From: Microcaldota archaeon
GTDB lineage: Archaea > Micrarchaeota > Micrarchaeia > Micrarchaeales > Micrarchaeaceae
DNA: 53,324 nt
Assembly: GCA_021848125.1 (NCBI GenBank)
Contig: JAJZMY010000009.1
Coordinates: 1 to 53,324, forward strand
Direction of reading: 5' to 3'
Shown here: piece after piece, positions 1-53,324 of the stretch
Layout of the letters: each line of letters starts with the position of its first letter
How positions within the stretch are numbered: position 1 is the first letter of the stretch
Translations under genes and position numbers: made by a program
The notes under the pieces: model-generated
Databases searched by the model: none
Told to the model about the DNA's origin: nothing
The model's input: the letters and a program-made list of their open reading frames with translations, nothing else

Positions 1-762
1 CAAAATTTCTTGATAAACAAACATATTGCAGAATTTGAAGCCAATTTTGGAAAAAATAAAAATGTTATTGAAATTGGTTCTGGCCTTGGTATTTTAACAC
101 AGGAATTAATAAATTCTGCAAAAAAAGTAATGTCAATTGAAAAAGATGAAAATTTATACAAATTATTAAAAAATGAGTTTAATGATAAATATAAAAATCT
201 GGTTTTAATTAATAAAGATATATTTGAAATAAATGACACTGAATTAAAGAATTTTGATATTATAATATCAAATATTCCTTATAATATCTCAAGCAAAATA
301 TTAACGCTGTTGGCAAAATTAAAACTAGATGCAGTAATGTGCCTGCAAAAAGAATTTGTTGAGCATATGACTGCAAAGCCTGGCACTAAAAAATATTCGA
401 AACTAAGTGTTTTTTCTTATTTGCAATTTAATATCGATATCTTAAAACAAATAAATGCAAATAATTTTTACCCCAAGCCTAAAATTAATTCAACAATTAT
501 TTATTTAAAATTTAAAAAAAATATTGATGAAAATAAATTAAAATTAATTTCATTATTAATGATGCATAAGAAGAAAAAATTGAGAAATGCATTTTTTAAT
601 TCAATAAAAAATTTAAATATAAGCAAGGAAAAAGCAGAACAAATAATAGAAAATTGCCAGTATAAAGATGAAAAAGTATTTAAAATTGATCCTGATCAAT
701 TAATGAATATTGCAGAATTTATTGAAAATAGATTAAGTTCCACTAAATACAATTTTACATAA
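1..762 (+). CDS. ksgA: KsgA/Dim1 16S rRNA adenine dimethyltransferase (5' partial)
   Basis: This enzyme dimethylates two adjacent adenines in the 3'-terminal hairpin of 16S rRNA during small-subunit maturation, using S-adenosylmethionine. The frame is open from base 1 and reads QNFLINKHI, the conserved N-terminal motif of the family, so the gene begins outside the window and the TTG at 10 is not the start. The SAM-binding loop IEIGSGLGIL lies about 20 residues in. The catalytic motif IV is SNIPY, a variant of the usual N-L/P-P-Y. The C-terminal helical domain with FYPKPKINSTI is present and the end looks complete. Its downstream neighbour is sepF, 86 bases away on the same strand. The family assignment is firm; only the length is unknown. 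Confidence 0.95.
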   Translation, partial: QNFLINKHIAEFEANFGKNKNVIEIGSGLGILTQELINSAKKVMSIEKDENLYKLLKNEFNDKYKNLVLINKDIFEINDTELKNFDIIISNIPYNISSKILTLLAKLKLDAVMCLQKEFVEHMTAKPGTKKYSKLSVFSYLQFNIDILKQINANNFYPKPKINSTIIYLKFKKNIDENKLKLISLLMMHKKKKLRNAFFNSIKNLNISKEKAEQIIENCQYKDEKVFKIDPDQLMNIAEFIENRLSSTKYNFT

Positions 763-7371: not shown

Positions 7372-7680
7372 TTATTGGCTTGGCTCATCCTGTTTCTTTT
7401 CTGACATGTTTTTTCTGCTTAAAATATGGGCTGCTTCGAACTTAGTTATTGATTCCTTGCTGTTGTAAAAATGTGCAGAGCCATTTAGGGATCTTGAACC
7501 AAATTCCTGCTTTATAGAGACTATAATCATTGTATCTGGATTCAGACTTAATTTTTTGCACAATTCAGCTTTTACGTCTAATTTTCTTGGTGTTTGCGCT
7601 TCGCCATTATCAATTATGAATTGAATTTCTTTTCTATCAAATAATTTATTATCAAATTCAGACATTATTTTTATGTTCAT
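7372..7680 (-). CDS. rps24e: Ribosomal protein S24e
   Basis: A component of the archaeal/eukaryotic small ribosomal subunit. The N-terminus MNIKIMSEFDNKLFDRKEIQF aligns by eye with the family consensus (MEIKI…N.L..RKEI), which favours the ATG at 7680 over the internal Met. The family core FGSRSLNGSAHFYNSKESIT is present. The length of 102 residues is normal. Its ATG overlaps the stop of the aIF5A gene (ATGA), indicating translational coupling in one operon: aIF5A, S24e, S27ae. Confidence 0.93.
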   Translation of the reverse strand: MNIKIMSEFDNKLFDRKEIQFIIDNGEAQTPRKLDVKAELCKKLSLNPDTMIIVSIKQEFGSRSLNGSAHFYNSKESITKFEAAHILSRKNMSEKKQDEPSQ

Positions 7681-8084
7681 TTTGCTTCACCGACTATTTT
7701 ATTTATTATTTTTCTATTCATTGCCTCGATAACTTCAACTTCGTTTCCTGGCTTTAATTTATTTAAAAGTTCTTGCGGAATTGCGAGCTCAAAAACATTA
7801 TACGTATCTAAATCCATTAATTGGGCAGTATTATTAGTCACTGAAACAACTTGTGATTTTGACTTGGTAATTACAGGCACCTGAACATCGCTGTCACTTG
7901 GCTTTAATAATGTTTTTTTCTGGCCGTCAAATATTCCGATTGCAGTAACTCTCATTTTTGACGATCCGTGCTTTCCAGGAGAACTTACATCTATTTCCAC
8001 TACTTTGCATGGGATGTCATCAATTAAAACAAATCTACCTATTTTAAGCTCCTTCATTGAAGCAAGAGAAATTTCACCACTCAT
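7677..8084 (-). CDS. eif5a: Translation factor aIF5A (hypusine-containing)
   Basis: aIF5A promotes elongation through difficult peptide bonds and helps termination; it is the only protein that carries hypusine. The modification loop is SSPGKHGSSK with the target lysine at residue 38. An N-terminal SH3-like domain and a C-terminal OB fold (about residues 75-135) give the usual length of 135. It is the first gene of the cluster with S24e and S27ae. The AT-rich region upstream (8085-8261) is a divergent promoter shared with the small ORF at 8262. Confidence 0.95.
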   Translation of the reverse strand: MSGEISLASMKELKIGRFVLIDDIPCKVVEIDVSSPGKHGSSKMRVTAIGIFDGQKKTLLKPSDSDVQVPVITKSKSQVVSVTNNTAQLMDLDTYNVFELAIPQELLNKLKPGNEVEVIEAMNRKIINKIVGEAK

Positions 8085-8261: not shown

Positions 8262-8426
8262 ATGGAAATAAATATTGATAAGATTGGAAAATATAAAAAT
8301 TCAGATGCTGTTATTACAGAAATAACAAGAGCAGTTGAAAAATTAGAATTAGGAGCAAACAAAAAAATCTTAAAAAATGCTGATCTGGAAAGCAGTTATG
8401 TTTTAGAAATTAAAATTAGAAAATAA
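8262..8426 (+). CDS. Small hypothetical protein, 54 aa
   Basis: An open frame of 54 codons from ATG, preceded at about 35-60 bases by TATA-like runs (ATTTAAATATTTATAAAT). The product is mixed-charge and helix-prone (SDAVITEITRAVEKLELG in the middle) with no cysteines or membrane span. I do not recognise a family. It is convergent with the aCPSF1 3' fragment, ending ten bases before that repeat. The codon content is coding-like, but the short length leaves doubt. Confidence 0.5.
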   Translation: MEINIDKIGKYKNSDAVITEITRAVEKLELGANKKILKNADLESSYVLEIKIRK

Positions 8427-8435
8427 AAAAGTATG

Positions 8436-8601
8436 CATTACTTTAATCTTATTGAATCCAGATTCATTGGTGCTCTTGAATCCGCATTTGTAATTTTTCT
8501 TAAAATGTCTGCAAGATCTTCGCATTTTTGCTCTTCGCCATGCATTGTAAATATTTTGCTTGGCCTTGGCCTTAAATCTTTTACAAAATCAATTAACTGC
8601 C
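8436..8601. repeat. Direct repeat copy A: orphan 3' end of the aCPSF1 gene
   Basis: A 166-bp segment identical base for base to 13198-13363. It consists of the last 164 bases of the aCPSF1 coding sequence (minus strand), including the stop codon, plus two bases beyond. There is no upstream remainder of the gene here, so this copy is an untranslated fragment. It lends its final bases to the methyltransferase reading frame, whose stop lies inside the repeat (8589-8591). It marks the left boundary of the inserted island. Before insertion, this would have been the native gene end abutting 8435. Confidence 0.95.
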
Positions 8602-9323
8602 ACTAGGTATTTTGCAGTTATTCTCTTTTTAATTACTGCTATAAATGTTTCATCATGACCTATGAACCTATCAACATACCACTCAGTACCATCAATTAAA
8701 GAGAGGACATCATTTTTAGAAGCATATAAAAATTTAAACCAATTCCCTTTATAAGTTTGATACCTTAAACGGAGTCTTAACTGCCCAGGCATTTTATTTT
8801 TTTTGATATTTTTTTTCATATATTTAATAAATGCAGGGTTTGTTATAGTATTGGGATCTCTAGATTCTCCGAGGATTATTGCATCTTTATTAGTTATTTT
8901 AGCTATTTTAGAAAGAATTAATTTAGCTTTTTTTGGTGTTTGTAATAACCCAAAATTTCTACCAAAAAGAACAATGCTATTAAAGTTTTTATAATTAAGT
9001 TTTTCTATATCAGAAATACTTAAAACTCTACTTTTTTTAAGCCCACTGTTTTTGCAAATTTTTATTGCAATTGGAGATACATCTATATTTGTAACATCTA
9101 TTTTTTTAGTTTTTAGATACTTTCCAACTCTACCTGGCCCACAACCAATATCTAATACAGGGCCTTGTATAAGGTTTATTGCAATTTTTTCAATTTTTGG
9201 CCATTTAGTAAATTCAGAAAAATAGGATTTGGGCGATGTTAAATCTATGCATCCATCATCTCGCTCTATTATTTCATGGATGTTTCCATACTTAATATAT
9301 GCAAGAAGTTCTTGACCAAACAC
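8589..9323 (-). CDS. Class I SAM-dependent methyltransferase, island cargo
   Basis: A Rossmann-fold methyltransferase with motif I VLDIGCGPGRVGKYL (about residues 55-69), motif II VTNIDVSPIAIKIC and post-motifs consistent with small-molecule or peptide methylation. The substrate is unknown. It directly follows the rSAM gene (28-base gap). The GTG at 9323 is the conventional start, but AGTG-N5-ATA places a possible AUA start at 9341, adding six residues. The natural family end would be near AVIKKR; the last residues and stop codon come from the aCPSF1 repeat, so the original 3' end was replaced at the junction. It probably acts with the rSAM enzyme. Confidence 0.85.
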   Translation of the reverse strand: MFGQELLAYIKYGNIHEIIERDDGCIDLTSPKSYFSEFTKWPKIEKIAINLIQGPVLDIGCGPGRVGKYLKTKKIDVTNIDVSPIAIKICKNSGLKKSRVLSISDIEKLNYKNFNSIVLFGRNFGLLQTPKKAKLILSKIAKITNKDAIILGESRDPNTITNPAFIKYMKKNIKKNKMPGQLRLRLRYQTYKGNWFKFLYASKNDVLSLIDGTEWYVDRFIGHDETFIAVIKKRITAKYLVAVN

Positions 9324-9351
9324 ATCTGTTATTTTATTTATGCTATCACTA

Positions 9352-10731
9352 TTAATTATAATTTAAATTTTTGATATATTCATATAGTACTAATTTTCTA
9401 TAATTGCATAATTCTCTATTTTCTCCAGCTTTATCAAAACTGCCATAATTGTTGTAAGATTCTTTTGTACAACCCCCACCACATTTTACAGGGCAAAAAG
9501 AACATTGCTTAAACTTAGAAATATCTCTTTTCTTACTTATTTTATATAATTTAGTTTTATTTATATTAATTTTACCCCTATTTAATATTTTACCTATTTG
9601 TAATTCCGATACAGGATCTACACATGCATAAAATTTATTGTCCAAACTTAAAGTAATTGATGAACCTCTGATATAGCTGCAAGTTTTACAAGAAAGAAGA
9701 TTAGTACCTATAGCTGGAAGAAGATTCGAAGTAATTTTAAAGTTGTTCTTTTTTGCAAAAATTAAAGCTTTTGCAAAGTTAACAACCAATGCATGCATAT
9801 TGGGTTTTGCAGATAGGAAGTTCTTTGCTCTACCACTAATTACAATTGGCTCTATGCGTACCTTATTAAATCCCATAGCCTTTAAGTTATTTATTACTTT
9901 GATAAATTTTCGTTCTATACCATTACATGCAGTAATCCTAACATAAGCAATATCTGATATATGTCTATATTTCTTAATCTCTGTTAAGGTTTTTAATATT
10001 TCCTTGGAGGTATCAAATTTATCGCTACCCCTATACTTATTAGTTAATTCGTCAAGACCATCATAAGAGATCTGCATTTTTACCTTATTATCAATAAAAT
10101 ATTTTATAATTTCTTCTCGTTTTTTCAGATATACTCCATTAGTATCTATTCGATAATTAATATTTAAATCCTTACAACTTTCTATTATTTGTTTTATTTT
10201 ATCAAATGTTAATGTTGGTTCGCCCATACCAAAAAATAAAACATTATTTGGTTTAAGAGTTCTTATTGCCAATTGAGCTGAATCTATATTAATCGTTGAT
10301 TTTATAATTGGATTGGCCCTATTTTTTATTACGCTACTGATCTCTCCTCCAAAAGCATAGCAATATTTACATTTTAAGTTACATAAATTAGTCATAATTA
10401 AGGTTAGATTATTTATTCTTGTGGATATAGATTCTTCTTCATTATAAGCAGACTTAGTAATAACATTATATGCAGCTAAAGAAATATAAAAAAAATTATT
10501 TAACAGTTCAGGATTAGCAGAAATATCTTTTTTAGATTTTAATTTTTTATTATTTTTAAGAAATTTATATTGAATAGAGTTAAGTTTTGTCGCAGAATTA
10601 AAATAAGGAGAATACACAAATATATTTTTACGATCATTAATGAAATATAATTCTGGATTTAAAATTTTTGGATATACTGCATCTGAATCCGCTTTTAATT
10701 CAGACCAGTCAGATAAATTTTTTATTTTTAT
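9352..10731 (-). CDS. Radical SAM/SPASM-domain peptide- or protein-modifying enzyme
   Basis: The radical SAM core has the cluster motif CNLKCKYC and a GGEP-like GMGEPTL. It is followed by a SPASM-type C-terminus with CKTC, an isolated Cys (FYACVDP) and CSFCPVKCGGGC plus a final Cys, enough for two auxiliary 4Fe-4S clusters. Such enzymes (anaerobic sulfatase maturase and RiPP maturase relatives) modify peptides or proteins by carbon-centred radical chemistry. I extend the N-terminus to an AUA codon at 10731: the frame stays open, the added residues look like a maturase N-terminal domain, and GGTG lies exactly five bases upstream. The conservative start is the GTG at 10617, giving 421 aa. It is preceded by a 39-aa peptide gene. 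Confidence 0.85.
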   Translation of the reverse strand: MKIKNLSDWSELKADSDAVYPKILNPELYFINDRKNIFVYSPYFNSATKLNSIQYKFLKNNKKLKSKKDISANPELLNNFFYISLAAYNVITKSAYNEEESISTRINNLTLIMTNLCNLKCKYCYAFGGEISSVIKNRANPIIKSTINIDSAQLAIRTLKPNNVLFFGMGEPTLTFDKIKQIIESCKDLNINYRIDTNGVYLKKREEIIKYFIDNKVKMQISYDGLDELTNKYRGSDKFDTSKEILKTLTEIKKYRHISDIAYVRITACNGIERKFIKVINNLKAMGFNKVRIEPIVISGRAKNFLSAKPNMHALVVNFAKALIFAKKNNFKITSNLLPAIGTNLLSCKTCSYIRGSSITLSLDNKFYACVDPVSELQIGKILNRGKININKTKLYKISKKRDISKFKQCSFCPVKCGGGCTKESYNNYGSFDKAGENRELCNYRKLVLYEYIKNLNYN

Positions 10732-10739
10732 AATAACAC

Positions 10740-10859
10740 CTATGATTTAAGTTTATTTTTAACAGATTCATCATTGCGGGAAAGAGATTTAATCACATTT
10801 ATATGCTTAATCTTTAAGTCTAGTAGATATAACAAATCCTTCCCTAAACCTTCTGACAT
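10740..10859 (-). CDS. Small peptide gene (39 aa) directly upstream of the rSAM enzyme
   Basis: ATG at 10859 lies eight bases after the Fic stop. A GAGG ribosome-binding motif falls in the Fic stop region, and the gene ends nine bases before the rSAM start. The product begins MSEGLGKDLLYLLDLK and ends VKNKLKS: a short acidic-to-hydrophobic leader-like helix, then a basic serine/lysine tail with no cysteine. Its position fits a precursor peptide for the rSAM/methyltransferase pair or a small binding partner. No known precursor motif is visible. Existence is supported by spacing and coding continuity, function only by context. Confidence 0.6.
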   Translation of the reverse strand: MSEGLGKDLLYLLDLKIKHINVIKSLSRNDESVKNKLKS

Positions 10860-10867
10860 TATAGGGA

Positions 10868-12721
10868 TTACCTCATTAATCCTTTCTTGTATAACTCTAA
10901 AAAATGAGGGCCAAAAATATTTTCTTTTAACATTTTATTAATTTCAGCTGCTTCTATAATTACAGTTTCAGAGTTAGGGATATTAAACAAGACTTCCTTT
11001 TGAATGCTACCTTTTCTGGATTTAATATAAGACATAAAAACAGCAATATCTTCTAAGTCGTGCTTTGGCTGCTCAACGTAGAAGTTATAATTTGAAGAAA
11101 TCCATTCATAGTCTTTCAATTTACTCATTATTGAAATTGCATAAGCTTTTTCGGTTTTATCTGTATTATTATCCTTTAGCACGAAATCCAAAAAATTTAA
11201 GTACCCTTCTGCTGGTTTATTTTGGCAAATAGCTAAATTATGCAATAATACTTTTCTTAATCTAGGCATTTTAGATGCAACCTCTGTCAATTTTTTAGAA
11301 ATTATTAGGTCATTTATTTTGTTATTTTTAGATAATCTATTTATTACAAATTCGGACACGACACTATCACCAAATTTATCAAATATCTTAATTATGTTAT
11401 TTGCTTCATCAAAATTTGCAAGACTGCTGTATGCCCTTACCTTAATTGTATCGGAATTAGAGTTGTCTAAGATATTTTTTATAACTTCCTTAGCCACCTT
11501 TGTATTGTTATAGTAGGCCATGGCTTCGCAGATTCTGGCTGCCAATGACTCTTCTAGTTTAATCTTAGATAGATTTATTAAAAAATCGCCATCATTTTCA
11601 AACTTTTTCTCAGAATATGTAAGTGCAGTAAATGCGAGGATTTTATTGTCAGGCCTTGGATCTGCAATAACGTGGCTTTTTAGTATATCATAGTACTTGT
11701 CAGGATTCGTTTTCCACATGCCCCATAAAGCCAGTGAACGTACTGTAGATATCTCAGATTCTGCAGAATTGGTAAAAACACTACCTAAATCAAGTTTGTA
11801 ATACGCACTTAGCCACAATGCAGACTTTATTGTTTCGGATTTAGATGCCAACTCATTTATTAATCGTTCGGCACTGCGTACATCAAGATCATTATTTATT
11901 GCTAAAAACAATTGTTTAAACTCTTGCTCATCATAATTGGAAGGCATTAATGATTTTATTTTATCTGTAATTTTAGGGTCGCTTCTTAAGTAAATTGATA
12001 GACCCTCAGCGAAAAATGGCAAATAGTATTCAGTAAAATCATAGGTTAAGAGAGTATTGAAATATAATTCTTTATCTTCTTTTAACACTATGAACGGCTT
12101 CATTTTGTTGCGCAATAAATACTGATTCATAATCAATCTACAAGTTCTTTTATTGCCATCCTCAAAAGGATGTGCATAAAATAACTGTAAATGAATATTT
12201 AATGCATTTAAAAACAATTTTGCTTGATTAGCCTCACTTGAATTAAATATATGAATGATATTATCTAGAGCTTCTCTGGTTTTTAAGAGGTCTGGAGTCA
12301 CGAATTGCCCGAAATTAACCCTAAAGCGCTTTAAGTTAGGATATATACCAAGAACATCCATTAACAGAAGACTGTGTATTTTAAGTATATCGTCTACACT
12401 TCGTTTTGACATAACAGATGAAATTAACTCTTCATATACTTTTTTATGATTCAGTAACTCAATATAATCAGGTATATTTGATTCTCCATCAAAAATAGCA
12501 TGATTAAAAAGAGCGTTAGCAGTTTTAAGAGGTGTTTTGTTCCCCTCAATTAAACTACTATAGTAAATCATTTTAAATGCATTATCTTTTAGTGTATTTT
12601 CTAAATCTAAAAAATTAGAGTTTTGATTTGATTTGTTCAATAAAAAAGAAAAAAAAGAAGTCCAACTAGGTAAGTCTGCCATGAGTCCGGCTTTATTATG
12701 CAGTGCTCTCGCAATCTTCAT
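10868..12721 (-). CDS. Class II Fic protein with helical-repeat (HEAT-like) C-terminal half
   Basis: The Fic domain transfers AMP or another nucleotide moiety to protein hydroxyls. The catalytic motif is HPFEDGNKRTCR (His184 to Arg195). An N-terminal auto-inhibitory motif, SSLIEGN (Ser55…Glu59-Gly60), matches the class II (S/T)xxxE(G/N) signature, so activity is self-restrained. From about residue 260 to 617 the protein is all-helical with repeating units of 30-40 residues, reminiscent of HEAT-type solenoids, likely a target-recognition platform. At 617 residues it is far longer than a minimal Fic (about 200). It heads the cargo operon. It could be an antiviral, toxin-like or regulatory AMPylator; its target is unknown. 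Confidence 0.88.
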   Translation of the reverse strand: MKIARALHNKAGLMADLPSWTSFFSFLLNKSNQNSNFLDLENTLKDNAFKMIYYSSLIEGNKTPLKTANALFNHAIFDGESNIPDYIELLNHKKVYEELISSVMSKRSVDDILKIHSLLLMDVLGIYPNLKRFRVNFGQFVTPDLLKTREALDNIIHIFNSSEANQAKLFLNALNIHLQLFYAHPFEDGNKRTCRLIMNQYLLRNKMKPFIVLKEDKELYFNTLLTYDFTEYYLPFFAEGLSIYLRSDPKITDKIKSLMPSNYDEQEFKQLFLAINNDLDVRSAERLINELASKSETIKSALWLSAYYKLDLGSVFTNSAESEISTVRSLALWGMWKTNPDKYYDILKSHVIADPRPDNKILAFTALTYSEKKFENDGDFLINLSKIKLEESLAARICEAMAYYNNTKVAKEVIKNILDNSNSDTIKVRAYSSLANFDEANNIIKIFDKFGDSVVSEFVINRLSKNNKINDLIISKKLTEVASKMPRLRKVLLHNLAICQNKPAEGYLNFLDFVLKDNNTDKTEKAYAISIMSKLKDYEWISSNYNFYVEQPKHDLEDIAVFMSYIKSRKGSIQKEVLFNIPNSETVIIEAAEINKMLKENIFGPHFLELYKKGLMR

Positions 12722-12830
12722 AATAGCAAGCAGATGCTTTATCTTTCCTTTTTAAAAAAATACTATTCTTCTGTACGCTTTTATCTGCATTTAACTTAGT
12801 CCATACAAGAATTTGTTTTTTATTACTCAT
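12696..12830 (-). CDS. Small ORF (44 aa) overlapping the Fic start
   Basis: This 44-codon frame starts at ATG 12830, behind GGTAATTAG and a TATA-rich box (12853-12869), so it is the first ORF of the island operon. The product is basic (KKQILVWTKLNADKS…) and ends with a Cys-rich tail, ACYYEDCESTA. It overlaps the Fic gene by 26 bases, which may couple their translation. It could be a regulator of Fic, a peptide substrate, or the frame-shifted former N-terminus of Fic. I recognise no family. Confidence 0.45.
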   Translation of the reverse strand: MSNKKQILVWTKLNADKSVQKNSIFLKRKDKASACYYEDCESTA

Positions 12831-12932
12831 CTAATTACCAATAGAGTTATTAATATTTAAATATTTAAACTTTAATATTTATTAAAAAGTTGGGTTTTTG
12901 TGAATTATATTTTTAAGTGGATGGGAATACGC

Positions 12933-13133
12933 CTATAATGCATCATCAGCATATTCGTCCAACGCCCATACAATATCCTTTGATCTATATCTCATTCTTT
13001 TAAATCCATGGTCCTACACGAACCATTTCTTACACTTGTGGCAGAAGAACTTCTGCTTTGTACCTGTTGCATTGTAGTGCATCCCTTTCTTTGCCACATC
13101 TGAAGATCCACAGTTATCACAAACTACATTCAT
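12933..13133 (-). pseudogene. Decayed N-terminal fragment of a zinc-ribbon insertion-sequence transposase
   Basis: Reading from ATG 13133 gives MNVVCDNCGSSDVAKKG… then FFCHKCKKWFV: a CxxC…CxxC zinc ribbon typical of the N-terminus of IS1/IS1595-like transposases. An in-frame TAG (13014-13016) interrupts it. Downstream the frame resumes with GFKRMRYRSKDIVWALDEYA, the helical segment that normally follows this ribbon, then stops again at 12933. No DDE catalytic core exists. It is a relic lying between the aCPSF1 stop and the cargo promoter, and it is the only trace of a recombinase-type gene in the island. Confidence 0.8.
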
Positions 13134-13197
13134 ACTAATCGCCTATGAGAGTATAGTGGTGAAGTTTTTTAAAGATAACGATTAATAGACTTTATCA

Positions 13198-13363
13198 CAT
13201 TACTTTAATCTTATTGAATCCAGATTCATTGGTGCTCTTGAATCCGCATTTGTAATTTTTCTTAAAATGTCTGCAAGATCTTCGCATTTTTGCTCTTCGC
13301 CATGCATTGTAAATATTTTGCTTGGCCTTGGCCTTAAATCTTTTACAAAATCAATTAACTGCC
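13198..13363. repeat. Direct repeat copy B: 3' end of the intact aCPSF1 gene
   Basis: Identical over 166 bp to 8436-8601. Identity stops two bases past the aCPSF1 stop codon on one side and, on the other, abruptly within the coding sequence (next bases TCC here against ACT in copy A). This copy completes the aCPSF1 open frame. If the element supplied the sequence, this is the element-borne copy and copy A is the chromosome's original gene end. Confidence 0.95.
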
Positions 13364-15155
13364 TCCTATCGCTGTGCCCTGAAAACCCTTCAACAGTAAA
13401 AACATTCATATTTATTTTCAAGGGTATTATTTTGTTATTTTCATCCATTATTGGCACTTCCTTTAAATTATTTTGAAGCCGTCTTCCTAATGATCCTGCA
13501 CTGTTGTATCCGACAAAAATAAGGGAATTTTTAGGATCATCAGCTAATTTCTTGAAATATTCCAAACTTGTTCCGCCATTTAGCATTCCGCCACTGGCAA
13601 GAATGATTGAAGGGCCTCTTTCCAATACCTGTTCCCTTTCTCCTTTTATTATTTCAAATATATCGCTTTCAAATGGCGATTTATTATTTAAAATCATGTT
13701 TTTCAAAGATTCCTTTAAATATTCAGGATATGCAGTATGGATTGCACTTGCTTCCAGTATCATGCCATCCATATAAACAGGCGCATCAATGTTGTAATTT
13801 TTTAAATATGAATTAAGAACTAACTGAATTTCCTGGGACCTTCCAACTGCAAATAAAGGAATAAGCACTTTTCCATTGTTTGATATTGTTTTTTTTATTA
13901 TATCCATTAAATTTATTTCTGCTTGCTTTCTGTTGATTGAAATATCATTATTTCCGCCATAAGTGCTTTCTATGAATAGTGCATCCATCCTGGGATACTT
14001 TATGTCAGCAGGATCAAACAGCCTGGTAAATCCATATTTCATATCCCCAGTATGGACAAGGTTGTATTCTCCTTCTCCTACATGCAAATGCACAATGCTG
14101 CTTCCGAGAATATGGCCAGCATTATGGTATGTGAGCTTTAATTCATTTGTAATGTTTGTCACTTCGCCGTATTCCCTTACTATTGTATGCATAAGCATGT
14201 TCCTAATGTCTTTTTCATCATATAATGGCGTTCCGCCAGTTTTTTGCACCAATCTAAAATAATCATTCAGCAAAAGTGCTGCCAGGTCTCTTGTTGGGGG
14301 GGTGCAGTAGACAGGCCCTTTATACCCGTATTTGTAGAGATATGGCACAAAGCCAATATGATCCATGTGTGCATGTGTTAAAACAACTGCATCAAGCTCT
14401 TCTATTGAAAAATTCGCAGCATCAAGATATGGAAATGCCTTATTGACTTCTGGGTCCTCATTTGCAATAGCTCCTTTTAGCCCTGGCTCTGGGCTTATTC
14501 CGCAGTCAATCAGTATTTTTGAGTTTTTCGTCTCCAGCAGCATTGATGATCTTCCAACTTCCCTATAGCCGCCAAGCGCAGTTACTTTAAGCCATTCGCT
14601 TTTCAATGCTGGCTGGTTTATTTGTTTTCCCAGGTTCAGGAGAAATTTTTTCCTAAAGTCCCTTTCATTATATACTAGATTCCTGACGCCTTCAATTGTT
14701 GAGCTTTCCATTGTCGGTATTCTCAGCACTTTTGGAATCCATCCTGTTTCATACATAATGGCTCTTAATGTAACTCCTTTTTTTCCTATAACCAATCCAG
14801 GCTTTAATGCCTCTATATAAACTGAGCTGAATTCTGATAAAAACTTGATAGAGCCTAGTTTTGCATCTTCTGGCACCAGCTCCTTGATTTTTTTAAGGGC
14901 ATTTTCAGGGTCCATTAATGATGCTGAATCGCTTCTAACTATTATTTTTTTCTTTATCTCAACTGCAATATCCTTTATTACTGTATCGTCTTTATAAACT
15001 GATTTCGCATTTTTCAGATAAATGACAATATCAGGGCCTTCAAATTCAGCTTTAATAAATCCAACACTGGACGGCAGCATTTCTTCAATTTTATCAAATA
15101 CGCTTTTTTGGATTTCGTTTTTGTTATTTTCATTGAATTCTTTCAAAACAACCAC
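13200..15155 (-). CDS. aCPSF1/FttA: KH-metallo-beta-lactamase/beta-CASP ribonuclease, transcription terminator
   Basis: aCPSF1 (FttA) cleaves nascent transcripts 3' to U-rich tracts and terminates archaeal transcription. Two N-terminal KH domains (about residues 1-180, with GLVIGKKGVTLRAI) precede the metallo-beta-lactamase core. Its metal motif is HAHMDHIG, with HNAGHILGSS and LVHTGDMKYG. The beta-CASP region has SGGMLNGG and SGHSDRRQL, and the C-terminal His is in FTMHGEE. The length of 651 is normal and the frame is intact despite the island at its 3' end. The start is GTG at 15155 or the in-frame TTG at 15146. It lies 56 bases after the proteasome gene on the same strand. Confidence 0.95.
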   Translation of the reverse strand: MVVLKEFNENNKNEIQKSVFDKIEEMLPSSVGFIKAEFEGPDIVIYLKNAKSVYKDDTVIKDIAVEIKKKIIVRSDSASLMDPENALKKIKELVPEDAKLGSIKFLSEFSSVYIEALKPGLVIGKKGVTLRAIMYETGWIPKVLRIPTMESSTIEGVRNLVYNERDFRKKFLLNLGKQINQPALKSEWLKVTALGGYREVGRSSMLLETKNSKILIDCGISPEPGLKGAIANEDPEVNKAFPYLDAANFSIEELDAVVLTHAHMDHIGFVPYLYKYGYKGPVYCTPPTRDLAALLLNDYFRLVQKTGGTPLYDEKDIRNMLMHTIVREYGEVTNITNELKLTYHNAGHILGSSIVHLHVGEGEYNLVHTGDMKYGFTRLFDPADIKYPRMDALFIESTYGGNNDISINRKQAEINLMDIIKKTISNNGKVLIPLFAVGRSQEIQLVLNSYLKNYNIDAPVYMDGMILEASAIHTAYPEYLKESLKNMILNNKSPFESDIFEIIKGEREQVLERGPSIILASGGMLNGGTSLEYFKKLADDPKNSLIFVGYNSAGSLGRRLQNNLKEVPIMDENNKIIPLKINMNVFTVEGFSGHSDRRQLIDFVKDLRPRPSKIFTMHGEEQKCEDLADILRKITNADSRAPMNLDSIRLK

Positions 15156-18289: not shown

Positions 18290-18475
18290 GGGGGCTGTTG
18301 AAAATTTAATTGTACAGAAGAATTTTGTTTTTATCTTTCCACTAATAAATTGGCGACAAGGACGACCCTGATGGTCATTTTGTAAATAGATATCCATAAA
18401 CCTTAGTGGAACCCGTCGCTGTATCAGCGGCGAGCCATTGTCCTCATATCCGACTGCAGATATATTGATATTTAT
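18290..18475 (+). ncRNA. Candidate structured RNA, unassigned
   Basis: This 313-base gap between TFB and the next gene holds a patch distinctly richer in G+C than its surroundings. A 9-bp perfect stem pairs 18337-18345 with 18403-18411 and encloses a GACC/GGTC hairpin (18364-18376). An 8-bp stem with a TAT triloop follows (18414-18421 with 18425-18432). One pair of the last stem is G-U on the plus strand but would be an A-C mismatch on the minus, favouring plus-strand transcription. A TATA-like TATTTAAAT (18261-18269) lies about 25 bases before a GGGGGG run. It does not match RNase P, SRP or 5S RNA by eye. Confidence 0.4.
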
Positions 18476-19286: not shown

Positions 19287-19475
19287 GCCTAATAATCACA
19301 GTAAGAGTTTAATAATCTTACGGTTATTTTGATTTTTAATGAGAATTCCGCTACTCACTTTTTTCCCATAAATTATTCATTCTTTATCTACAAATAAATA
19401 TTGGCGAACCAAATGGATAAGTCTTATGCAGACTTGTTGAAAGAGAATGACCTTTTGAAAAAGTCTAACTTAATA

Positions 19476-44699: not shown

Positions 44700-45089
44700 T
44701 TATATTAGGCCTTTTAATGAATCCAGATATTTGTTTAGGCTGTTATATAGCTTATTTTTTAATTCATTATCCAATCCGAATATGTCTGCAAACGCATAAA
44801 AATCTCTAACATAAGCTATAAACTGTCTTTTTTCCATTTCAATTATTTTTTCAGTGCAATAATCAGAAGCTGCTGCTTTTATATTTTGCTTTGTTATGCT
44901 GTTAAGATTCTGGCAAATGTCTGAATTACAGAAATTGTCAATTAATAGAGATATTTTTCTTTCCTCTTTTTCCTTGTTATTTTCTATTGAAATTTCTTTT
45001 ATGCATTGTTTTATGGCTTTTGATTTTTCCATATCTTCTGTATAAGGGTCATCCATAACTCTTTTATAAATTTTGAAATCTTTTTCCAT
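44700..45089 (-). CDS. Hypothetical helical protein with conserved-looking cysteines
   Basis: A predicted all-helical protein, about 129 residues from MEKDFKIYK. It has Cys in KQCIKE, FCNSDICQ and YCTEK, which could make disulfides or bind metal. A longer version would start at 45188, but the extra 33 residues are typical of translated AT-rich spacer and GATGATAAAATG precedes the internal start. No membrane span is seen and the family is not recognised. It precedes the tyrS-side cluster in the opposite direction to DUF355. Confidence 0.55.
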   Translation of the reverse strand: MEKDFKIYKRVMDDPYTEDMEKSKAIKQCIKEISIENNKEKEERKISLLIDNFCNSDICQNLNSITKQNIKAAASDYCTEKIIEMEKRQFIAYVRDFYAFADIFGLDNELKNKLYNSLNKYLDSLKGLI

Positions 45090-45262
45090 TTTATCATCAA
45101 AAAAACATAAATAATATTTATTGTATGTTTCAATATATTTATTGTTTTTGTTTAAAATAAAATTTATTTTAGAAATAATTAAATACATGCCTGCATATTT
45201 TTATTTTATCAGCAAAAAATTTATTAGTAAATATTAATTATACTTATCTGATATTTGCCATT

Positions 45263-53046: not shown

Positions 53047-53324
53047 ATGAATAAGAAAATTCAAAAGAAAAAGACAAATATTAAAAGTAAAGCTAAAAAT
53101 AAAAAGAATTTAATAAAAAAAAGTATAGAAGTTAAAAATAAGTTTAAAAAATTAAAAATTAAGAACATTAAAATAAAGAATAAAAAGAATTTAATAAAAA
53201 AAAGTATAGAAGTTAAAAATAAGTTTAAAAAATTAAAAATCAGAGACCTTAAAATAAAGAAGAAGGATAAAAAGAATTTAGAACATATTAAAAAAAGAGG
53301 GCTTTTAAATAATCCAAAGGCAGG
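53047..53324 (+). CDS. Lysine-rich protein with 27-residue internal repeat (3' partial)
   Basis: The frame from ATG 53047 is open to the window end (92 codons visible). The product is extremely basic (about half Lys) and carries two tandem copies of a unit containing NLIKKSIEVKNKFKKLKI, 27 residues apart. It then reads EHIKKRGLLNNPKAG at the edge. It may be a basic nucleic-acid-binding tail preceding a folded domain outside the window, as seen in TFB here. No function is assigned. TATA-like ATATATTAG lies about 35 bases upstream. Confidence 0.65.
   Translation, partial: MNKKIQKKKTNIKSKAKNKKNLIKKSIEVKNKFKKLKIKNIKIKNKKNLIKKSIEVKNKFKKLKIRDLKIKKKDKKNLEHIKKRGLLNNPKA
53098..53159. repeat. 62-bp tandem-type repeat, copy 1
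   Basis: Perfect 62-base match to 53179-53240, with an 81-base period, so the repeat unit equals 27 codons and the reading frame is kept. It lies inside the lysine-rich ORF. The near-perfect DNA identity implies recent duplication or strong selection for homogeneity. Confidence 0.9.
53179..53240. repeat. 62-bp tandem-type repeat, copy 2
   Basis: Second copy of the 62-base unit, identical to 53098-53159. After it the sequence diverges (CAGAGACC against TAAGAACA). Confidence 0.9.

What the first reader, a model, noticed from the sequence alone, without database searches (positions are those of the whole stretch)
8436..13363. Element integrated in the 3' end of the aCPSF1/FttA gene, restoring the gene via a 166-bp perfect duplication
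The repeat covers precisely the last 164 coding bases, the stop codon and two more bases, and brackets all accessory genes. Only one full aCPSF1 reading frame exists, so the host transcription-termination gene remains intact. Integration into an essential single-copy protein gene's 3' end with gene restoration is well known for tRNA genes but rare for this kind of gene. No integrase is encoded, which suggests mobilisation in trans, loss of the recombinase, or single-crossover entry of a small circle.
Basis: partly seen in the sequence, partly recalled or inferred. Interest (0 to 1): 0.9.

Follow-up and report, generated by a model that had tools for sequence, protein, structure and literature searches.

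The report
Gene island beside duplicated aCPSF1 end
A 4.6-kb block of accessory genes sits at the end of an archaeon's single transcription-termination gene, which stays whole because its last 166 bases were perfectly duplicated on the other side of the block; this is a known way for mobile DNA to settle, here at a target gene I found no earlier record of and without the enzyme that usually does it.

Summary
Window 8436-8601 and 13198-13363 are identical over 166 bp (161 sense bases of aCPSF1/FttA, its TAA stop, and TG). It is the only pair of its kind (over 300 bp apart) in 773 kb of the own genome. Two congeners carry the empty site: aCPSF1, then a convergent small ORF, then IF5A. The fragment at 8436 abuts that native flank, so 8602-13197 is inserted. 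Congeners are only 63-65% identical over these 166 bp, so the second copy came from this species' own gene, recently. Contig-end overlaps show a k=127 assembly, so a perfect 166-bp repeat is not the usual overlap artefact; short reads alone cannot fully exclude a circle beside an empty chromosome. The cargo is a Cys-tailed 44-aa peptide, Fic-HEAT, a radical SAM/SPASM enzyme and a methyltransferase, plus a transposase relic. No tyrosine or serine recombinase was found in the own genome. Best reading: Campbell-type integration of a circle bearing the gene end, like e14 at icd or a CIME. The recombinase (lost, in trans, or homologous recombination) is inferred. Gene-end integration is not rare for protein genes. 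No second case appeared in 301 genomes of the class.

The parts
13200..15155 (-). aCPSF1/FttA gene, intact, 651 aa; the target gene
   Evidence: TIGR03675 827 bits vs cut-off 580; KH_TffA, Lactamase_B, Beta-Casp and RMMBL domains
13198..13363 (-). Repeat copy 1: end of the intact aCPSF1 (161 sense nt + TAA + TG), joined downstream to the island
8436..8601 (-). Repeat copy 2: detached 3' fragment of aCPSF1, joined to the native downstream flank
   Evidence: flank matches congeners in gene order
8602..13197 (.). Inserted island, 4596 bp, absent from congeners
   Evidence: empty site in G001/L033 and G003/L035; GC typical, tetranucleotide profile at the 4th percentile of the genome
12936..13133 (-). 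Relic of a transposase-like zinc-ribbon N-terminus with one in-frame stop (66 aa); family not identified by Pfam
   Evidence: translation; no Pfam match; name is by eye from sequence
12696..12830 (-). 44-aa ORF with Cys-containing tail, possible RiPP precursor peptide
   Evidence: similar-size Cys-tailed ORF upstream of Fic in G127 and G023
10868..12721 (-). Fic domain plus HEAT-like helical repeats, 617 aa (start may be the ATG at about 12682)
   Evidence: PF02661 E=4e-14; motif HPFEDGNKR; helical C-terminal half, pLDDT mostly 65-90
9352..10719 (-). Radical SAM/SPASM protein; GTG ORF begins at 10617 but homology starts at 10719 with no ATG/GTG/TTG there
   Evidence: PF04055; closest NCBIfam PapB NF047865, 104 bits vs cut-off 340; profile span
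8589..9323 (-). Class I methyltransferase; last codons and stop lie inside repeat copy 2, in a frame other than aCPSF1's
   Evidence: Pfam; homologues end 1-8 aa after query residue 233, or at comparable places
8262..8426 (+). Native downstream flank: convergent small ORF, 54 aa, with probable counterparts in the same place in congeners
7677..8084 (-). IF5A gene, native neighbour downstream of the empty site
   Evidence: PF21485; same order in G001 and G003

Best explanation
A small DNA circle carrying the cargo operon and a copy of the last 166 bp of this species' own aCPSF1 gene recombined once with the chromosomal aCPSF1 end. The crossover left the complete gene next to one end of the cargo and a detached 166-bp gene end, still attached to the native flank, at the other. 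Shown: the exact repeat, the intact gene, the empty site in congeners, the native flank on the far copy, the cargo genes, and no recombinase found in the island or the own genome. Inferred: the circular intermediate and the enzyme. The enzyme may be a tyrosine recombinase acting in trans or since lost (the island would then be like a cis-mobilizable element, CIME), or the host's homologous recombination.
For: Perfect 166-bp repeat bracketing the cargo, unique in the genome. Empty site with the same flanking genes in two congeners. The downstream edge of the repeat lies 2 bp past the stop, as expected if a gene end is restored. The upstream edge lies at the natural 3' end of the methyltransferase, so the cargo operon is complete. 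The copies are 100% identical while congeners are 104-108/166, so the circle's copy came from the same species recently. Tyrosine recombinases are common in the family and order (36 of 60 relatives). The cargo pair Fic-radical SAM is patchy: 3 intact and 2 decayed in 301 genomes. Precedents: e14/icd 163 bp (PMC6379469), Thaumarchaeota (PMC6563490), CIMEs (PMC5704250).
Against: No integrase in the island, and no PF00589 or PF00239 match in the own genome; no PF00589 match in the three congeners searched either. No second tandem aCPSF1 duplication in 301 genomes of the class, so it is not shown to be a recurring site. 166 bp exceeds the usual archaeal att length of 40-60 bp (PMC8371274). No circular form was seen; a viral-collection scan for the junction found none.
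Confidence: 0.6

Rival explanations
1. One-off insertion of cargo DNA into a staggered break (or by template switching) downstream of and within the aCPSF1 end. Fill-in repair made a 166-bp duplication on both sides. No circle and no att site.
For: Explains 100% identity without needing a same-species donor, the lack of any recombinase in the own genome and the lack of recurrence in the class.
Against: Does not explain why the repeat stops 2 bp after the stop codon while the gene stays intact, nor why the other edge meets the natural end of the methyltransferase gene. 166 bp is far longer than ordinary target-site duplications (established knowledge).
Confidence: 0.2
2. The cargo is an extrachromosomal circle holding the 166-bp gene end, and the chromosome is empty; the assembler threaded both through the shared 166 bp.
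For: The repeat is longer than the assembly word size: contig-end overlaps show mismatches exactly 126 bases from a terminus in 7 of 7 cases, so k=127. The four junctions are the same in both layouts.
Against: Paired reads normally resolve 166 bp. The island has no replication gene among its ORFs.
Confidence: 0.1
3. Plain misassembly: the second copy is an overlap left by joining contigs of two strains.
For: The population has strain variants at contig ends, and a 795-bp contig-end overlap of this kind explains the apparent second copy in relative G116.
Against: Overlaps in this assembly are perfect only up to 126-127 bp; longer ones carry a mismatch exactly 126 bases from a terminus. A perfect 166-bp repeat with distinct sequence on all four sides does not fit that pattern.
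Confidence: 0.06

Closest known systems
E. coli element e14 in icd (PMC6379469)
   Same: Insertion in the 3' end of a housekeeping protein gene; the element supplies the gene end; a displaced 163-bp pseudo-gene end remains on the far side
   Different: e14 is a 15-kb prophage and the restored gene differs by a residue. Here the island is 4.6 kb, no phage or recombinase gene was seen, and the copies are identical
Cis-mobilizable elements, CIMEs (PMC5704250, PMC7563491)
   Same: Cargo flanked by direct repeats at a gene 3' end, with no recombination or transfer genes
   Different: CIMEs are defined by descent from an ICE or IME with attL/attR of a known recombinase; no parent element or recombinase is known here
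Integrated elements of Thaumarchaeota, including casposons in the EF-2 gene (PMC6563490)
   Same: Archaeal insertions in 3'-distal ends of conserved protein genes with the reading frame rebuilt
   Different: Direct repeats there are generally short, and the casposons are bounded by terminal inverted repeats and target-site duplications. No recombinase gene was seen in this island

Membership tests
Gene-end-restoring integrated element (e14/icd type) | Direct repeat made of the 3' end of the target gene on both sides of the insert | tested here: met
Gene-end-restoring integrated element (e14/icd type) | Empty site in close relatives | tested here: met
   congeners G001 and G003, same order without insert or fragment; no same-species genome held
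Gene-end-restoring integrated element (e14/icd type) | Site-specific recombinase encoded by the element | tested here: not met
   island ORFs; no PF00589 or PF00239 match in the own genome
CIME | Retains flanking attL/attR but lacks recombination and transfer genes | tested here: inconclusive
   repeats present and genes absent, but no recombinase has been shown to use the repeats as att sites
CIME | Derives from an ICE or IME by deletion | tested here: inconclusive
   no ICE or IME remnants seen; no related element at this site in 301 genomes of the class
CIME | Excises when a related element integrates in tandem | not testable with these tools
   needs culture or reads
Casposon | Cas1 homologue, short target-site duplication, terminal inverted repeats | tested here: not met
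   no Cas1-like gene among Pfam hits of the island; 166-bp repeat; no inverted repeat at the island ends
PapB-type radical SAM peptide maturase (cargo) | Score above the NCBIfam cut-off | tested here: not met
   104.5 bits vs cut-off 340; a distant relative only

The most novel reading that the evidence does not exclude
A small mobile cassette in a small-genome archaeal lineage uses the 3' end of the transcription-termination gene aCPSF1/FttA as its attachment site, moves by a recombinase supplied in trans, and carries a new peptide-modification system (Cys-tailed peptide, Fic-HEAT, SPASM radical SAM, methyltransferase).
Probability: 0.2. Interest if true: 0.6.

Novelty: new member of a known kind. 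Interest (0 to 1): 0.4.

Why it matters
It adds the termination factor gene to the list of protein genes whose 3' end has been used as an insertion point while staying whole, in a lineage whose mobile elements are little described. It supplies a clear test (circular junction, empty site, recombinase in trans). The cargo points to an undescribed peptide-modifying gene set.

Tried and rejected
Recurrent aCPSF1 attachment site: eight of 301 genomes of the class showed two matches to the gene end. Besides the own genome, G116 is a 795-bp contig-end overlap at 96.7%; G282, G288, G293 and G294 are second matches in long ORFs of 435-459 aa, apparently the paralogous beta-CASP protein; G150 is a cut contig and G020 a decayed fragment, both followed by an ASCH-domain-like gene that natively follows aCPSF1 in G086, so they are transferred or binned neighbours rather than att sites. 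Cassette elsewhere flanked by repeats: G023, G127, G027 and G062 show no direct repeats of 40 bp or more around the pair. G127's 3.9-kb contig is not circular by end overlap. Viral collection: no relative of the radical SAM, of aCPSF1, or of the junction. Plasmid collection: only the Fic domain, no match over 80% of the protein. Structure model of Fic-HEAT: N-terminal half not reliable. The genome-wide radical SAM scan returned only general SPASM enzymes, with no Fic partner.

Full report
Check of the observation. The two stretches 8436-8601 and 13198-13363 are identical over 166 bp. A DNA search of the own genome (776 kb, 41 contigs) finds only these two. A self-comparison of 773 kb shows no other same-contig direct repeat of at least 60 bp and 93% identity except a 104-bp pair 216 bp apart.

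Where the insert lies. In congeners G001 and G003, about 81% identical in aCPSF1, the gene is followed by a convergent small ORF and then IF5A, with no cargo and no gene fragment. In the window the same flank follows the copy at 8436, while the full gene at 13198 runs into cargo. So 8602-13197 is the inserted part. Over the 166 bp the congeners are only 104, 105 and 108 of 166 identical, so the duplicate came from this species' own gene and recently, or has been kept identical by conversion.

Is it an assembly artefact? Seven pairs of contig ends of this genome overlap by 134-162 bp, and in all seven a mismatch lies exactly 126 bases from a terminus, which marks a de Bruijn assembly with k=127. 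An overlap artefact would be perfect only to 126-127 bp; a perfect 166 bp with four different outer sequences is not of that form. Because 166 exceeds 127, however, the words alone cannot tell an integrated island from a circle plus an empty chromosome; read pairs would.

Edges. The downstream edge of the repeat is 2 bp beyond the stop codon, as expected for a gene end that must be restored. At the other edge the methyltransferase ORF runs into the repeat and borrows a stop in another frame; its homologues end at about the same residue, so the cargo operon is essentially complete.

Cargo. All cargo genes read in the direction of aCPSF1: a transposase-like relic with a stop (named by eye, no Pfam match), a 44-aa peptide with two Cys, a Fic protein with a helical-repeat C-terminal half, a radical SAM/SPASM protein whose nearest NCBIfam model is PapB but far below its cut-off, and a class I methyltransferase. 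Fic-radical SAM pairs also occur in G023 and G127, with decayed remains of the radical SAM gene in G027 and G062: 6 of 301 genomes match the radical SAM profile at 1e-30, one of them (G253) a partial match not checked for a Fic partner. Both other intact pairs have a 40-44-aa Cys-tailed ORF upstream of Fic, though the G023 reading frame also opens further upstream. A peptide-modifying function is inference.

Mechanism. The layout fits recombination between one gene end on a circle and the same gene end on the chromosome. No tyrosine recombinase (PF00589) or serine recombinase (PF00239) is found in the own genome, while 36 of 60 relatives have PF00589 matches. The enzyme is therefore either gone, acted in trans, or was the host's homologous recombination. 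Homologous recombination has been seen in Thermococcus kodakarensis only over 500 bp or more, but a plasmid integrase of Thermococcus nautili recombines segments as short as 104 bp (PMC5495485). Archaeal att sites are usually 40-60 bp (PMC8371274).

Comparison. e14 in icd leaves a 163-bp duplicated gene end (PMC6379469), 14 of 68 thaumarchaeal elements lie in 3' ends of protein genes (PMC6563490), and CIMEs are cargo with att sites but no recombinase (PMC5704250, PMC7563491). So the kind is known and not rare for protein genes; the target gene and the lineage appear unrecorded in the papers I could search. Search of 301 genomes of the class found no second case. Membership of the CIME class is not claimed, since no recombinase or parent element is known.

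Noticed in passing
window 12696-12830 (-); L133 and L132 upstream of Fic: 40-44-aa ORFs with Cys-containing tails precede the Fic-HEAT and SPASM radical SAM genes in three genomes: a possible undescribed RiPP-like cluster.
   Followed up: partly
window 10617-10747 (-): The radical SAM reading frame is open and homologous upstream of its first GTG, but has no ATG, GTG or TTG there; either a non-standard start or a decaying gene.
   Followed up: no
window 18293-18440, 19301-19408, 45082-45197, 53094-53261: Members of dispersed 60-230-bp repeat families found on many contigs of the genome.
   Followed up: no
L034 about 9250-9593 (G002): In a third congener other sequence, which looks like transposase remnants by eye, lies downstream of the small ORF after aCPSF1, so the region may be prone to insertions.
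   Followed up: no
L271 7771-8091, L258 4448-4768, L056 6584-6907: An ASCH-domain-like gene follows aCPSF1 in G086 and is found with an aCPSF1 end at a contig edge in G150 and with a decayed aCPSF1 end 38 kb from the real gene in G020: a transferred neighbour pair.
   Followed up: partly
own genome contig ends (e.g. window 1-138 with C18): Seven contig-end overlaps of 134-162 bp with a mismatch exactly 126 bases from a terminus reveal k=127 and likely adjacency of contigs.
   Followed up: yes
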